NCBI RefSeq assembly: GCF_002024165.1 | Contig: NZ_MWQN01000001.1 | Coordinates: forward strand, 930,001-994,000 | DNA: 64,000 nucleotides | Direction of reading: 5' to 3' | Source of the DNA: Embleya scabrispora | Lineage (GTDB): Bacteria; Actinomycetota; Actinomycetes; Streptomycetales; Streptomycetaceae | Shown here: in pieces, positions 29,216 to 63,239 of the stretch | Layout: the number at the start of each line of letters is the position of its first letter | Numbering within the stretch: the stretch's first letter is position 1 | Made by a program: the position numbers and the translations under genes | The notes under the pieces: model-generated | What the model was told of the DNA's origin: nothing | What the model saw: only the letters and a program-made list of their open reading frames with translations | Database searches by the model: none

Positions 29216-29698
29216 TCAACTCCGCGTGAATCGCGCCAGGTTCTCCGCCGTGGGCCGCCACGCCTCGGCGAACTCCGCCGGCAGTTCGACGGCGTCCAGG
29301 ATCGGATGCCTCGGTACCGAGACCCGATACCTGATCCGCCAGCCGCGCGGCGTCCGTTCGAGGATGTCGTAGTAGTCGCCGCCGTGTACCTCGCCGTCGA
29401 TCAGCGTCGCGATGTATCGGCTGCGGGCCCGGACCGTGCCGCCCGCGTCCACCAGGAGCACGGTGTCGAGCGTCTGGTGGTCGGGGGTGTCCGGGCTGCG
29501 TCGGCCGGTGAACTGCCGCGCCGAGGCGATCCCTTCGATGGTGTAGCCGGCGCCGATGGTGTTCTCGATCACTGCGTTGTCCGTGAACACCCGGTGCAGG
29601 TCGGCGACTTCGTCGTTGTCGAAGACGTGCGCGAACTGCGCGAGGGTGTCGTGGATCTCCGCGACGTCCGCCGCGCTCAGCGCGGGTGCGCCGGTCAC
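29216..29698 (-). CDS. SnoaL/NTF2-like cyclase-fold protein (second of a tandem pair)
   Basis: A 160-residue small protein with the NTF2-like cone fold. The start ADVAEIHDTLAQFAHVFDNDEVADLHRVFTDNAVIENT and the later RSRYIATLIDGEVHGGDYYDILERTPRGWRIRYRVSVPR are typical. Polyketide relatives act as cyclases, epoxide hydrolases (MonBI/BII) or pyran-forming enzymes (SalBIII). The GTG start overlaps the stop of its neighbour by four bases, so the two are coupled and may form a heteromer. It closes the synthase operon just before the terminator. Compared with the first copy, it has an extra C-terminal segment (EFAEAWRPTAENLARFTRS). Confidence 0.85.
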   Translation of the reverse strand: MTGAPALSAADVAEIHDTLAQFAHVFDNDEVADLHRVFTDNAVIENTIGAGYTIEGIASARQFTGRRSPDTPDHQTLDTVLLVDAGGTVRARSRYIATLIDGEVHGGDYYDILERTPRGWRIRYRVSVPRHPILDAVELPAEFAEAWRPTAENLARFTRS

Positions 29699-30159
29699 GG
29701 CGCGACCACCTCGGCGAGCCGGACCGCAAGCGGGAAGCCGACCCGGGCCACGCCCGCCCCGGCCTCGCGGGGAGCGCGCGGCAGGCTCAGCCGATAGGCG
29801 ATCCGCCAGCCGGCCGGGGTCTTCCGGAGGATGTCCAGGAATTCGCCGCCGGTGATACGACCGGCCGGGTTGATCCCGATGTAGCGGCTGCGCGTCTGGA
29901 CCTGGCCGTGCTCGTCCACCTCGACGGTCGTGTTCACCGTGTGATGGTCGGGTGTCGCGGCGCTCTTGCTCCGGGTGTACTCGGCGAACTCGGCGATGCC
30001 GTGGAAGGCCCGCTTGGGTCCGAGGCCGATCTCGACCACGACGTCCTCGGTGAACACGAGGCCGAGTCCGTCCACGTCACCGTTGTCGAAGACGTGCGCG
30101 AACAGGGCGAGCGTGCGGTGGATCTCGGCGAGGTCCACCGGCGTCAATACCTTCGTCAT
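29695..30159 (-). CDS. SnoaL/NTF2-like cyclase-fold protein (first of a tandem pair)
   Basis: A 154-residue paralogue of its neighbour. PVDLAEIHRTLALFAHVFDNGDVDGLGLVFTEDVVVE and TRSRYIGINPAGRITGGEFLDILRKTPAGWRIAYRLSLPR align with the other copy through almost the whole length, sharing the Asp and His positions of the active-site cone (FDNGDVDGL, TPDHHTVNT). It starts 70 bp after the last synthase gene on the same strand, so it belongs to the synthase operon. I infer a post-synthase ring-forming role. A purely structural or dehydratase role is possible. Confidence 0.87.
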   Translation of the reverse strand: MTKVLTPVDLAEIHRTLALFAHVFDNGDVDGLGLVFTEDVVVEIGLGPKRAFHGIAEFAEYTRSKSAATPDHHTVNTTVEVDEHGQVQTRSRYIGINPAGRITGGEFLDILRKTPAGWRIAYRLSLPRAPREAGAGVARVGFPLAVRLAEVVAP

Positions 30160-62600: not shown

Positions 62601-63239
62601 GGCGACGGTGCTCTCCGCGGCCAGGTTCAGGTGCACACCGCCGGCGAACGCGACGGTGGACTCGCCGCTGCGCAGGCTCTCGCAGGCCAGGTGTACCGCG
62701 ACCAGCGAGGAGGACTGCGCGGTGTCGACGGTCAGGCTCGGGCCGTGCAGGTCCAGGGCCCAGGACAGGCGATTGGCGATCAGCGCGCGAGCGACGCCGG
62801 TGAAGGTGTGCCGGGTGATCGCGTCGGTTCCGTACCGGTGCACCACGGTGGACCAGTCGCCGGCGATCGCGCCGACGAACACGCCGGCCCGGGTGCCCGC
62901 GAGGGATTCGGGCAGGAGGCCGGCGTCTTCGGCGGCCTCCCACCCGAGTTCGAGGGCCAACCGCTGGTGCGGGTCCATCGCGTCGGCCTCGCGCGGCGAG
63001 ATGCCGAAGAACGCCGCGTCGAAGGTGTCCACCCGGTCGAGGTAGCCCCCGGGCCGCAGGTCCGCGCCGCGCCGGCGCTCGGCGCCCGCCTCGCCGACGG
63101 CGTCCACACCGTCCGCGAGGAGTCGCCAGAAGGCGGCGGGGTCGGCGGCGCCCGGCAGCCGGCAGGCGGTTCCGATGACGGCGATCGCGCCGCCGTGCCG
63201 ATCGCGGTCGCCGGCGGTGTTCTCACTGGTCGTCATCAT
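53655..63239 (-). CDS. Type I PKS, loading module (KSQ-AT-ACP) and module 1 (KS-AT-DH-ER-KR-ACP)
   Basis: A 3194-residue first synthase; it has no N-terminal docking coil, as expected for the start of the line. The first KS has Gln175 in place of the active Cys (DTAQSSS), a KSQ decarboxylase. Its AT (about 535-835) has GHSQGE and YASHS, so methylmalonyl-CoA is loaded and decarboxylated to propionyl. Loading ACP has GFDSVG near 965. Module 1 has KS1 (about 1030-1450, DTACSSS), AT1 (about 1560-1900; GHSIGE, HAFHS, malonyl), DH1 (about 1930-2200; HAVQDTVLLP, LDAALH), ER (about 2430-2735; GLNFRDVLIALG, ATGGVGTAAVQ), KR1 (about 2743-2970; GGTGTLG, AYAAAN, B-type-like VAD) and ACP1 (EFDSLG near 3067). 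The tail DDLFDFIDNELGIS is a docking end. Confidence 0.95.
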   Translation of the reverse strand: MMTTSENTAGDRDRHGGAIAVIGTACRLPGAADPAAFWRLLADGVDAVGEAGAERRRGADLRPGGYLDRVDTFDAAFFGISPREADAMDPHQRLALELGWEAAEDAGLLPESLAGTRAGVFVGAIAGDWSTVVHRYGTDAITRHTFTGVARALIANRLSWALDLHGPSLTVDTAQSSSLVAVHLACESLRSGESTVAFAGGVHLNLAAESTVAAERFGALSPDHRSFAFDARANGFVRGEGGAVLLLKPLERALADGDPIHAVIHGSAITSDGDTDGLTVPDVGAQTDVLRRAASAAGVAPDRIQYVELHGTGTRVGDPIEAAALGTAYGAGRTGADRLAVGSVKTNIGHLEGASGIVGLLKTVLGIRRRTLPASLHHTSANPATDPAGNGLRVLTEAGPWPRPDRPLLAGVSSFGMGGTNCHVVVGEAPAVVADEVPEGEAPAPEGPRALVASVLPWPLSARDPRALPGQAGRLAAVDAAPGDVALTLAAHRTAFAHRAVLLGEESAELRDAAGALAAGLPSADAVTGVAHPHTSTVFVFPGQGSQWIGMARQLRAESPVFAAHLDACADALAPHVDWSPHDVLRDVPGAPGLDRVDVVQPALFAVMVSLARLWEAFGVRPDAVIGHSQGEIAAAHIAGALTLADAARLVARRSLLLAGLAPGGGMASIPLPADEVRAAPTVRAGRIAIAAINGPSSTVVSGDRDALDTLLADYTEAGVDVRSIPVDYASHSAHVEPLRADLARELEALAPVSSDIAFYSTVTGGPLDTAGLDADYWYRNLRGTVRFEDAVRAALADGRRVFVESSPHPVLTMGLRQILDEAGSADAAAALTVGTLRRDDGGARRLVTSLAQAYVHGVPVDWTAALPADARRTELPTYAFLPTPHWIAEPAATPRDAPAAGSTRAGDIGAVNSATENGSSHLGDGPGHAAPDPLALVRATAAVVLGHAGPGAVDPDRTFKDLGFDSVGALEFRDRLTAASGTALSASLTFDHPTPRAVAAHLAHRTAGTVPADGGGPGTGPAPAAPEDDPIVIVAAGGRWPGGADTPEALWDLLATGTDTIGPFPTNRGWDLDALHDPDPGPGRPGTTYVRAGGFLHAADTFDAGFFGISPREAAAMDPQQRLLLETAWEVVERAGIAPSTLRGTRAGVFVGAMPQEYGPRLHEASEDHAGHLLTGALTSVASGRLAYTLGLEGPALTIDTACSSSLVALHLAARSLRAGECTLALAGGVTVMSTPGMFTEFARQRGLAPDGRCKPFAAAADGTAWAEGAALVLLERHSDARRNGHPVLAVLRGSAINQDGASNGLTAPNGPAQQRVIRAALHDAGLSPAEVDAVEAHGTGTTLGDPIEAEALLSTYGADRPADRPLLVGSVKSNLGHTQAAAGVTGVIALIEAMRHGELPRTLHLDAPSPHVDWARGGVRLLAEPTPWPDADRPRRAAVSSFGISGTNAHVILEQAPIEARPTAATQDDAGPWTLSAASAEALPAQAARLRTHLAERPDLALGDLALALAGTRDTLAHRAVITGGGRDDLLRGLDALVDGLDAANLIEGAARPSAPLAVLFSGQGSQRVGMGRELYAAEPVFGRALDEALAHLDAALDRPLRDLLFAEPDSAEAALLGETAYTQPALFAIETALYRLVEAYGVRADHLIGHSIGELTAAHIAGVLDLPDAAALVVARGRLMGRIPATGAMIALQGTEDEIAALIAEHPTEVGIAAVNGPDSVVISGTADLVEALADRWRAAGRKSRRLRVSHAFHSPHMDAVLDEFRAVAAGVRFGTPRIPIVSNVTGDLADAAELADPDYWVRHIREAVRFRDGIRRLADLGTTTFLELGPDAVLTALALANLDDPSAVVVAALRADRPEPTTFTHALARLHVTGTPVDWTTTRGRREPGRVDLPTYAFRRRRHWLDPSRASADPTSAGLDPSEHPFLGADLTRADGSGRVWTGTLSTTNRPWLADHAVQDTVLLPGTAFVDLALYAAERTGAGGVGELVLAEPLVLPDAAPVRIELAVGAEQPDGTRALTVHSRAAGTETWTRHATGRLDPARDTTPAPTDTAWPPPGASPIDVVDVYDRLAALGYHYGPTFQGLIAAWQAGDDLLAEVELPEPVEEIGHRVHPALLDAALHAVVALLPGTDPAAPTRLPFAWAGAAAHTAGARELRVRISPIGPDTIALAATDDRGTPVVTIDRLTLRAIPAERLATRPGAPGSGADSAADSWYRVDWMPVPPGESVAADDGWVILGETADPFGLTTLAEADDRPVVFHPDLDALRAALAAGAARPARVLVPFARPVPELGTVVAAHAVTERAVTLLGTWLADPALGDITPVLLTREAIATHPGEDVRDPTAAGLWGLVRAAAGEHPGRLRVLDLDIHPDSLAALPAALAGPETQLALRAGDILAPRLARVRPDDALEPPRAQEPWRLDVTEPGTIDNVAMLPAPEAGAPLAPGQVRIALRAAGLNFRDVLIALGVYPGAARIGAEGAGRVLEVAPDVTDLAVGDRVMGLLPGVLGSQAVVDHRLLTPIPAGWTYAQAATVPVAFLTAYHGLVELAGLRAGESVLVHAATGGVGTAAVQLARHLGADVHGTASPAKWPTLRAQGLPDERIASSRTLDFEDRFRAGTAGRGVDIVLNALAREFTDASLRLLAPGGRFVELGKTDPRDPAEVRAAHPGIDYRAFDLLTLDPAHIAHMLRVLAPLFASGTLTPLPVTAWDARHAIPALRRLSQARHTGKLVLTIAPTPTPFDPAGTVLITGGTGTLGALAARRLVAEHGARHLLLVGRHGPSAPGATELRAELAAAGASVEIAACDVADPTALAELLDGIATAHPLTAIVHTAGVVADGALTGTDPDRLHAVLRPKVDAAWHLHTLTADLDLSAFVLYSSAVGVLGNPGQSAYAAANTFLDALAHHRHSLGLAATSIGWGHWAEAGGLAAHLTDVDRRRLAGSGLAPMRTDTALDLLDRALDTPLPAPIAARIDTGTLRPDAAVGVLAGLTRAAGQARVPAQRGAARTTRKPAAGLRDRLAGRPVDEQRRELLLFVRQTAAAVLGHDGPAAIAPERGFMEAEFDSLGAIELRNRINAGTGLDLPSTLAFDHPTPIALAEHLRDLLAPAPAAPDGGRLLDELDRWQVSLADLLNAGAGTDEGFRADAVARLYELLGRLGVAAPEDPTSAVIARLGAGTDDDLFDFIDNELGIS

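What the first reader, a model, noticed from the sequence alone, without database searches (positions are those of the whole stretch)
29216..63239. Complete six-module PKS with an apparently 3,5-diketo end: predicted alpha-pyrone (or oxa-cyclised) polyketide
Seen: four colinear synthase genes with one loading and six extension modules, all KS active sites intact, AT motifs readable. From PKS colinearity rules I infer propionyl start; M1 malonyl, fully reduced; M2 and M3 methylmalonyl, hydroxyl; M4 malonyl, alkene; M5 methylmalonyl, ketone; M6 methylmalonyl, ketone. The released chain would be a 9,11-dihydroxy-2,4,8,10-tetramethyl-3,5-dioxo-pentadec-6-enoyl unit, C19 in all. A 3,5-dioxo acyl end readily closes to a 4-hydroxy-3,5-dimethyl-2-pyrone; a 12-membered lactone through the 11-OH is the alternative. 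I do not recognise a known product with exactly this module order.
Basis: partly seen in the sequence, partly recalled or inferred. Interest (0 to 1): 0.72.

Follow-up and report, generated by a model that had tools for sequence, protein, structure and literature searches.

The report
Uncharacterised pyrone-type polyketide assembly line
A soil actinomycete carries a complete six-step polyketide assembly line, shared with a related genus, that probably makes a C19 molecule ending in a pyrone ring, and its last step keeps an intact dehydratase that has no partner reductase and so no obvious job.

Summary
The module line is real: four minus-strand genes encode a KSQ loading module and six extension modules with intact motifs. 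No further synthase gene lies in the 20 kb on either side. Embleya hyalina and Yinghuangia soli have the same architecture. DH6 is conserved there (67% to Yinghuangia; DH1 61%, DH4 65%), so it is not decaying.

In 200 genomes of the family, the GRSMGG thioesterase subfamily occurs in 17, with SnoaL_4 within 1.7 kb behind it in all 17. The penultimate module lacks a KR in 14 of 14 readable members, against 2 of 15 readable control lines. Relatives outside the window type carry an SDR-SnoaL-SnoaL_4 cassette instead. The family is built around a 5-oxo-acyl end, which favours a pyrone-type release, C19H30O5, over a 12-membered lactone. The roles of DH6 and the SnoaL pair are inferred. MIBiG could not be searched. 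A new variant of a known kind.

The parts
53655..63239 (-). PKS1: loading KSQ-AT(methylmalonyl)-ACP, module 1 KS-AT(malonyl)-DH-ER-KR-ACP
43966..53523 (-). PKS2: modules 2 and 3, each KS-AT(methylmalonyl)-KR-ACP, with dimerisation elements and N-terminal docking domain
35220..43898 (-). PKS3: module 4 KS-AT(malonyl)-DH-KR-ACP, module 5 KS-AT(methylmalonyl)-ACP (no KR). The ORF is open to 44090; start inferred
30230..35167 (-). PKS4: module 6 KS-AT(methylmalonyl)-DH-ACP-TE, no KR. The ORF is open to 35275; start inferred
31508..32377 (-).
   Evidence: Pfam; His and Asp retained; conservation; model; PDB match 4ln9 Z 36.3
31355..31507 (-). short linker between DH6 and ACP6; resembles the linker that follows the KR in module 4, as if a KR had been cut out
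   Evidence: reading of the linkers, no test
30251..30988 (-). thioesterase of the GRSMGG subfamily
29695..30159 (-). SnoaL-1 (SnoaL_4, NTF2-like fold), overlaps SnoaL-2 by 4 bases
29216..29698 (-). SnoaL-2 (SnoaL_4)
25827..26588 (-). type II thioesterase; a like gene directly follows the SnoaL pair in Yinghuangia (read from translation)
26634..27392 (-). SARP/BTAD-type regulator; present in E. hyalina, not seen at this place in Yinghuangia
63461..64000 (-). 3' part of a LuxR-type ATPase regulator (984 aa, continues to the equivalent of window 66415)

Best explanation
This is a complete modular PKS of genus Embleya that belongs to an uncharacterised family of clusters built around a 5-oxo-acyl end. 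Shown: the module order, the motifs, the missing KRs of modules 5 and 6, the intact DH6, the SnoaL pair and the conservation across genera. Inferred: methylmalonyl is decarboxylated to propionyl. Six extensions give a 9,11-dihydroxy-2,4,8,10-tetramethyl-3,5-dioxopentadec-6-enoyl chain on ACP6. The enol at C5 attacks C1 while the GRSMGG thioesterase releases the chain, giving 4-hydroxy-3,5-dimethyl-6-(4,6-dihydroxy-3,5-dimethyldec-1-enyl)-2-pyrone, C19H30O5. The two SnoaL_4 proteins, encoded by overlapping genes and probably working as a pair, steer or follow this closure by acid-base chemistry on the enone/diketone. DH6 is kept for a job on the diketo chain (enolisation or ring closure), not for ordinary dehydration, because no KR supplies it with a 3-hydroxyl.
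For: Domains and motifs. The same four genes with DH6 and no KR6 in Embleya hyalina and Yinghuangia soli. TE and SnoaL_4 together in 17 of 17 TE-clade genomes, and 17 of 18 SnoaL_4-positive ones, of 200. KR-less penultimate module in 14 of 14 readable clade members (window plus 8, 5; 3 cut by contig ends) and 2 of 2 of the sister clade, against 2 of 15 readable of the next 20 TE hits. DH6 conservation; catalytic His and Asp; tree path window-Yinghuangia 0.64 for DH6, 0.67 for DH4, 0.90 for DH1. Precedent, read: PMC6916388 section 3 part 1 (a KR-null module turns the aureothin line to the pyrone luteoreticulin) and PMC10204065 part 1 of 3 (a diketo thioester closes to an alpha-pyrone even without TE).
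Against: An alpha-pyrone can form without any enzyme (PMC10204065), so a conserved TE and two SnoaL proteins suggest that more happens. The short-form relatives end in a DH-KR module (2-ene, 5-oxo), predicted 2E from a B-type KR, which cannot close to a pyrone directly. The TE's nearest solved relatives are FluC (fluvirucin) and then DEBS and Pik TEs, recalled as macrocyclising. Frankia AgB1.9 and G065 end in two KR-less modules without any DH, so DH6 is not needed for such an end. The clade members share descent, so the 14 of 14 are not independent.
Confidence: 0.5

Rival explanations
1. Oxa-cyclised product. DH6 and/or the SnoaL pair add an oxygen to the C6=C7 enone: either the C3 enol attacks C7 to give a 2,3-dihydropyran-4-one, or the 11-OH attacks C7 to give a tetrahydropyran. 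A pyrone may or may not form as well.
For: DH6 keeps its catalytic residues without a KR and is conserved. AmbDH3, a DH-type cyclase, is among its close structural matches (5o15, Z 35.4, rmsd 2.1, 281 aligned). ActVI-ORFA (5bka), Caci_6494 with DNPA (6vw4), Aln2 (6p7l) and the MonBI-MonBII complex (9kw8) are among the fold matches of SnoaL-1. SalBIII as a pyran-forming dehydratase-cyclase was read in PMC4979870 section 8 part 1.
Against: The best structural and sequence match of DH6 is an ordinary DH (4ln9), and ordinary DHs and AmbDH3 score alike. The short-form relatives keep SnoaL_4 but lack both the 11-OH and an oxygen at C3 by prediction, so this cannot be the common SnoaL function.
Confidence: 0.22
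2. Twelve-membered macrolactone. The TE closes the 11-OH onto C1 and the 3,5-dione stays in the ring; the short-form relatives would be 10-membered lactones through the matching 9-OH.
For: TE nearest to FluC, then DEBS, Pik and Tyl TEs. Long and short forms both carry a KR in module 2, so a hydroxyl next to the same predicted butyl end.
Against: The TE clade is marked by the KR-less penultimate module, which a macrolactone does not need. Adjacent diketo thioesters close to pyrones readily (PMC10204065).
Confidence: 0.15
3. Linear release: the TE hydrolyses the chain to the diketo acid, which loses CO2 or is changed by the SnoaL proteins to a product without a pyrone.
For: SnoaL_4 matches include dehydratase- and isomerase-type NTF2 folds. 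There is no other gene between TE and SnoaL-1.
Against: Diketo thioesters tend to close on their own (PMC10204065); no hydrolase-specific feature of the TE was looked for.
Confidence: 0.08
4. About DH6 alone (overlaps with the readings above): DH6 is a relic with only a structural role, left when KR6 was deleted, and the SnoaL proteins act on the end without it.
For: The DH6-ACP6 linker resembles a post-KR linker. The three DH6 sequences share the change PGT to PAS. G065 and Frankia AgB1.9 lack a DH there.
Against: DH6 is conserved at least as well as DH1 and DH4 between genera (67 vs 61 and 65% identity; dN/dS 0.24 vs 0.42 and 0.34), with His and Asp invariant. Within Embleya it lies between them (0.31 vs 0.50 and 0.22).
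Confidence: 0.3

Closest known systems
Aureothin / luteoreticulin assembly line (pyrone end from unreduced carbonyls; PMC6916388, section 3 part 1 read)
   Same: modular type I PKS whose unreduced carbonyls enolise and close to a pyrone; loss of KR function in a module that keeps its DH leads to the pyrone luteoreticulin
   Different: nitroaryl compounds, modules used iteratively or skipped; no SnoaL pair mentioned in the part read. Here a KSQ propionyl start and a DH in the KR-less last module
Venemycin / pyoluteorin-type triketide pyrones (PMC10204065, part 1 of 3 read)
   Same: two successive unreduced extensions off-load as an alpha-pyrone
   Different: short aromatic starters; no reduced backbone, no SnoaL genes mentioned in the part read
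   Same: KSQ start and a fully reducing malonyl module 1 in the five full lines; same TE subfamily; KR-less methylmalonyl penultimate module where readable; SnoaL_4 behind the TE
   Different: five extension modules in the five full lines; last module malonyl with DH-KR; an SDR and a second SnoaL between TE and SnoaL_4, which the window type lacks
SalBIII, MonBI/MonBII, ActVI-ORFA: NTF2-like or SnoaL-like proteins of polyketide pathways
   Same: ActVI-ORFA and MonBI-MonBII share the fold of SnoaL-1; MonBI-MonBII is also a pair
   Different: not among the sequence matches; substrate and reaction not tested; the SalBIII fold is recalled

Membership tests
Modular PKS with alpha-pyrone release | last two extensions left unreduced (3,5-dioxo chain) | tested here: met
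   no KR in modules 5 and 6
Modular PKS with alpha-pyrone release | product carries a 2-pyrone | not testable with these tools
   needs isolation or expression
Pyran synthase (PS) domain | DH-like domain with the catalytic Asp changed to His or Asn (PMC4979870 section 8 part 1) | tested here: not met
   DH6 keeps the Asp (position 218 of A3) and the His (position 43)
AmbDH3-type dehydratase-cyclase | acts on a 3-hydroxy thioester, so a KR must act first | tested here: not met
   no KR in module 6; the only KR-domain ORFs found in the window are those of PKS1-3, none in 20 kb on either side; a trans-acting reductase elsewhere is not excluded
Ordinary modular DH | His in HxxxGxxxxP and Asp in the second motif | tested here: met
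   both present in DH6 of three genomes; the G of the first motif is D in Embleya DH6 and also in DH1 of this PKS, G in Yinghuangia
Ordinary modular DH | KR in the same module to supply the hydroxyl | tested here: not met
SnoaL/NTF2-like polyketide cyclase | NTF2-like fold with conserved acid and His | tested here: met
   Pfam SnoaL_4; D25 and H72 invariant in 24 rows; model pLDDT 86, Z about 15 to NTF2-like chains
SnoaL/NTF2-like polyketide cyclase | catalyses ring closure | not testable with these tools
   no assay; the solved matches include dehydratases, isomerases and NTF2, which do not discriminate
Macrolide (12-membered) assembly line | macrolactonising TE | tested here: inconclusive
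   TE nearest FluC and then DEBS/Pik by sequence, but its clade tracks a 5-oxo substrate
A characterised cluster in MIBiG | same module string | not tested
   MIBiG not available; open-access paper searches gave no match

The most novel reading that the evidence does not exclude
In the Embleya/Yinghuangia line a dehydratase domain stripped of its ketoreductase, together with a SnoaL_4 pair, has become a ring-closing device that acts on the 3,5-diketo thioester and fixes which oxygen heterocycle is made: a cis-AT PKS terminal module whose DH works as a diketide cyclase. In the related lines this role would fall to the SDR-SnoaL-SnoaL_4 cassette, which is present in the relatives of the other types examined (12 of 12 unnamed, 14 of 14 named) and absent from the window type.
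Probability: 0.2. Interest if true: 0.7.

Novelty: new variant of a known kind. Interest (0 to 1): 0.45.

Why it matters
It links a recognisable thioesterase subfamily (GRSMGG) and an SnoaL_4 gene to one chemical situation, a 5-oxo-acyl end, across several actinomycete genera. That gives a sequence handle to find and predict pyrone-type polyketides. It also offers a natural test of what a dehydratase does when evolution removes its reductase. If the product is an ordinary alpha-pyrone, it is still a C19 member not seen in the searches made here, with a compact, apparently complete cluster that could be expressed whole.

Tried and rejected
Further synthase genes beside the cluster: none in 20 kb on either side; regulator and transporter genes follow on the right (two of the eight right-flank ORFs matched no Pfam family, probably read in a wrong frame). 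DH6 as a decayed leftover: not supported by identity, dN/dS or tree, though a purely structural role is not excluded. DH6 as a pyran synthase: the Asp is retained. A SnoaL-type enzyme in piericidin as precedent: my recollection was wrong; PieC is described as an SRPBCC protein whose loss only lowers the titre (passages of PMC4979870). Peucemycin, a gamma-pyrone macrolide, as a possible known relative: C24H30O6, and no gene cluster for it in what I read (part 1 of 4 and passages of PMC8693821). E. scabrispora and E. hyalina are named as producers of hitachimycin and nybomycin (passages of PMC13152386); I know of no reason to link either to this line. Embleya sp. NF3 paper (passages of PMC11672506): nothing on this cluster in the passages. 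(TE against the PDB) used a wrong frame and found nothing; it was redone. In the phylum sample only the own genome and two others, whose loci I did not read, had SnoaL_4 at E 1e-20 (3 of 396 genomes). In the family sample the single-sequence search gave 36 of 200 genomes at E 1e-10; hits below about 37% identity were not examined in context.

Rows dropped or cut: of 17 TE-clade members, three (G031, G092, G180) could not be read for the penultimate module because contigs end. Of 20 control TEs, five (G013, G148, G109, the second copy of G072, and G198 with a broken frame) were unreadable. The clade cut-off (E 1e-111) was set after seeing the gap between 373.9 and 334.6 bits. SnoaL_4-positive G125 has no PKS domain in the 20 kb read. 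Of 19 named loci, 14 show the GRSMGG TE next to SnoaL_4; L057, L058, L060, L063 and L065 do not. L057, L058 and L065 lie on short contigs or at contig ends; L060 and L063 (Frankia) have 10 kb flanks without it.
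Full report
What is there. Window 1-64000 is C1:930001-994000 of a 10.96 Mb, 8-contig genome. A same-genus genome in the sample, G020, has its cluster on a contig of the same length and position as that of Embleya hyalina NBRC 13850, so the window is from an Embleya. The minus strand carries four PKS genes. Pfam and window-derived HMMs give: PKS1 KSQ-AT-ACP / KS-AT-DH-ER-KR-ACP; PKS2 KS-AT-KR-ACP / KS-AT-KR-ACP; PKS3 KS-AT-DH-KR-ACP / KS-AT-ACP; PKS4 KS-AT-DH-ACP-TE. 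Motifs are intact: Gln in the loading KS and Cys in the six others; YASH in AT-L, 2, 3, 5, 6 and HAFH in AT1 and 4; VAD, LDD, LDD and IDD in KR1-4, without Trp eight residues upstream of Tyr (B-type; the rule for LDD and Trp is stated in PMC6916388).

Module 6 has a complete DH (PF21089 and PF14765) and no KR. Behind the TE stand two SnoaL_4 genes that overlap by four bases, 30159-29695 and 29698-29216. Then come a PPTase and a metallophosphoesterase on the other strand, a SARP regulator and a type II TE. To the right lie a LuxR-type ATPase regulator, ABC transporter genes with a family-5 solute-binding protein, and TetR. No PKS domain other than PKS1's own start was found in 20 kb on either side.

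Conservation. E. hyalina (G020/L054) and Yinghuangia soli (G029/L056) have exactly the same four-gene architecture, including DH6 without KR, and the SnoaL pair. Streptomyces sp. SID3343 (G031/L055), on a short contig, shows the TE and the SnoaL pair. In Yinghuangia a type II TE follows the SnoaL pair directly, and regulator, ABC transporter, TetR and MFS genes lie on the other side as in E. hyalina (read from translations). So the SARP, PPTase and metallophosphoesterase genes are not part of the shared core.

Is DH6 decaying? Window against Yinghuangia: DH6 67.0% identity, dN/dS 0.24; DH4 65.0%, 0.34; DH1 61.0%, 0.42. Window against E. hyalina: DH6 92.8%, 0.31; DH4 93.2%, 0.22; DH1 91.2%, 0.50. 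In the DH tree the window-Yinghuangia path is 0.64 for DH6, 0.67 for DH4 and 0.90 for DH1. The catalytic His and Asp and the YGP motif are kept, while PGT has become PAS in all three DH6 sequences. The AlphaFold model (pLDDT 78.9) matches ordinary DHs (4ln9 Z 36.3, rmsd 1.7, 269 aligned; 6obv Z 36.3, rmsd 1.8, 274 aligned) and AmbDH3 (5o15 Z 35.4, rmsd 2.1, 281 aligned) about equally. The linker between DH6 and ACP6 reads like the one that follows KR4, as if a KR had been cut out of a DH-KR module. I infer that DH6 is kept by selection; its reaction is not known.

The wider family. SnoaL_4 relatives in named genomes (19 loci) lie in Kitasatospora, Nonomuraea, Acrocarpospora, Herbidospora, Streptomyces, Frankia and a Streptosporangiaceae MAG, besides Embleya and Yinghuangia; 14 of the 19 show the GRSMGG TE beside them. 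Five lines read in full (G049, G174, G057, G160, G128) have five extension modules: malonyl DH-ER-KR, methylmalonyl KR, malonyl DH-KR, methylmalonyl without KR, malonyl DH-KR-TE (the module 1 AT of G160 reads RAFH, so its malonyl call is less sure). Their loading KS is also KSQ (VDSAQSS). G065 is intermediate: like the window up to module 5, then KS-AT(malonyl-like motif)-ACP-TE without DH.

A swapped cassette. Between TE and SnoaL_4 the other types carry an SDR and a further SnoaL. With the two G049 proteins as queries, both were found in 12 of 12 unnamed lines of those types (G049, G174, G065, G057, G160, G128, G192, G072, G166, G154, G045, G180) and in 14 of 14 named loci outside the window type and the two relic-like Frankia loci L057 and L063 (at least one locus is in both sets). 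Neither was found in the window, G020, G029, L054, L055, L056, L057 or L063 (all). Pfam was run on one SnoaL (PF07366, G049) and one SDR (G160) only. So the window type has a second SnoaL_4 (and, where the last module is held, DH6) where its relatives have SDR plus SnoaL. SnoaL-1 and SnoaL-2 form two supported clades, each with Embleya, Yinghuangia and Frankia tisae, so the duplication is old.

Association tests. In a sample of 200 genomes of the own family (Streptomycetaceae, after the placing of Embleya in PMC13152386) the TE profile finds a group at E 1e-111 or better in 17 genomes; the next hits have 334.6 and 330.1 bits, then 245.5 and below. SnoaL_4 at E 1e-30 is in 18 genomes, the same 17 plus G125. 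From the two tables the SnoaL_4 lies within 1.7 kb behind the TE in all 17. The penultimate module lacks a KR in 14 of the 14 that can be read (nine, window included; five), and in both sister lines G168 and G152 (GRSLGG, no SnoaL_4). Among the next 20 TE hits, 15 are readable and 2 lack that KR. These lines share ancestry, so the numbers describe a clade and are not independent trials. The common denominator is a 5-oxo acyl chain delivered to the TE. The last module varies (keto or ene), and so does its extender.

Mechanism. The 5-oxo group, constant in the readable TE clade, is the oxygen that closes an alpha-pyrone. Such closure follows KR loss in the aureothin system (PMC6916388, section 3 part 1) and can occur without a TE (PMC10204065, part 1 of 3). 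I therefore favour 4-hydroxy-3,5-dimethyl-6-(4,6-dihydroxy-3,5-dimethyldec-1-enyl)-2-pyrone, C19H30O5, at about even odds. Against it: spontaneous closure would not need a conserved TE and two SnoaL proteins, the short-form relatives need an isomerisation first, and the TE's nearest solved relatives are FluC, DEBS and Pik. SnoaL-1 is an NTF2-like protein (pLDDT 86). Its matches include scytalone dehydratase, LinA, bile-acid 7-alpha-dehydratase, ActVI-ORFA, Aln2, Caci_6494 and MonBI-MonBII, all within about 1.5 Z units, so the fold gives a class and not a reaction. D25 and H72 are invariant in 24 rows, which fits acid-base chemistry on an enone or diketone.

Known or new. No paper listed by ten open-access searches was seen to describe this cluster or product; papers in subscription journals and MIBiG were out of reach. 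It is best filed as a new variant of modular PKSs with a pyrone-type release.

Noticed in passing
window 27603-29152 (+): A PptT/Npt-like PPTase (NCBIfam below cut-off) beside a metallophosphoesterase sits between SnoaL-2 and the SARP. The pair looks like the housekeeping pptT/pptH pair of actinobacteria (recalled, not searched), and neither gene was seen at this place in Yinghuangia.
   Followed up: partly
L010:4067-10095 (right flank): ABC transporter genes with a family-5 solute-binding protein (importer type) and a TetR regulator adjoin the cluster; similar solute-binding proteins stand by the related clusters in E. hyalina, Yinghuangia, G065 and Frankia (read from translations). An importer-type system kept with a polyketide cluster is unexplained.
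   Followed up: partly
L057 (Frankia tisae contig, 3040-4689): SnoaL-1 and SnoaL-2 homologues plus a further SnoaL-2-like copy stand on a 7 kb contig without any PKS domain found.
   Followed up: no
G168 and G152 (L084-L091): Sister lines with a GRSLGG thioesterase end in two KR-less modules; neighbouring genes read like a crotonyl-CoA reductase, an acyl-AMP ligase and a KSIII, so an ethylmalonyl pyrone is possible. Their identity was judged from translations only.
   Followed up: partly
window 5255-13003 (-): A run of genes that reads like aromatic-acid breakdown (fumarylpyruvate hydrolase, gentisate dioxygenase, nitrilase, hydroxylase, CoA ligase); read from translations, not searched.
   Followed up: no
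window 19281-23967 (+): A large protein that reads like indolepyruvate ferredoxin oxidoreductase, followed by an acyl-CoA dehydrogenase; read from translations only.
   Followed up: no
G000 C1 about 6.1 Mb and C3 about 0.55-0.60 Mb: Further places in the same genome match a PKS3 probe of this window (window 40000-41000), at 64-79% DNA identity over stretches of varied length, so other PKS loci are likely there.
   Followed up: no
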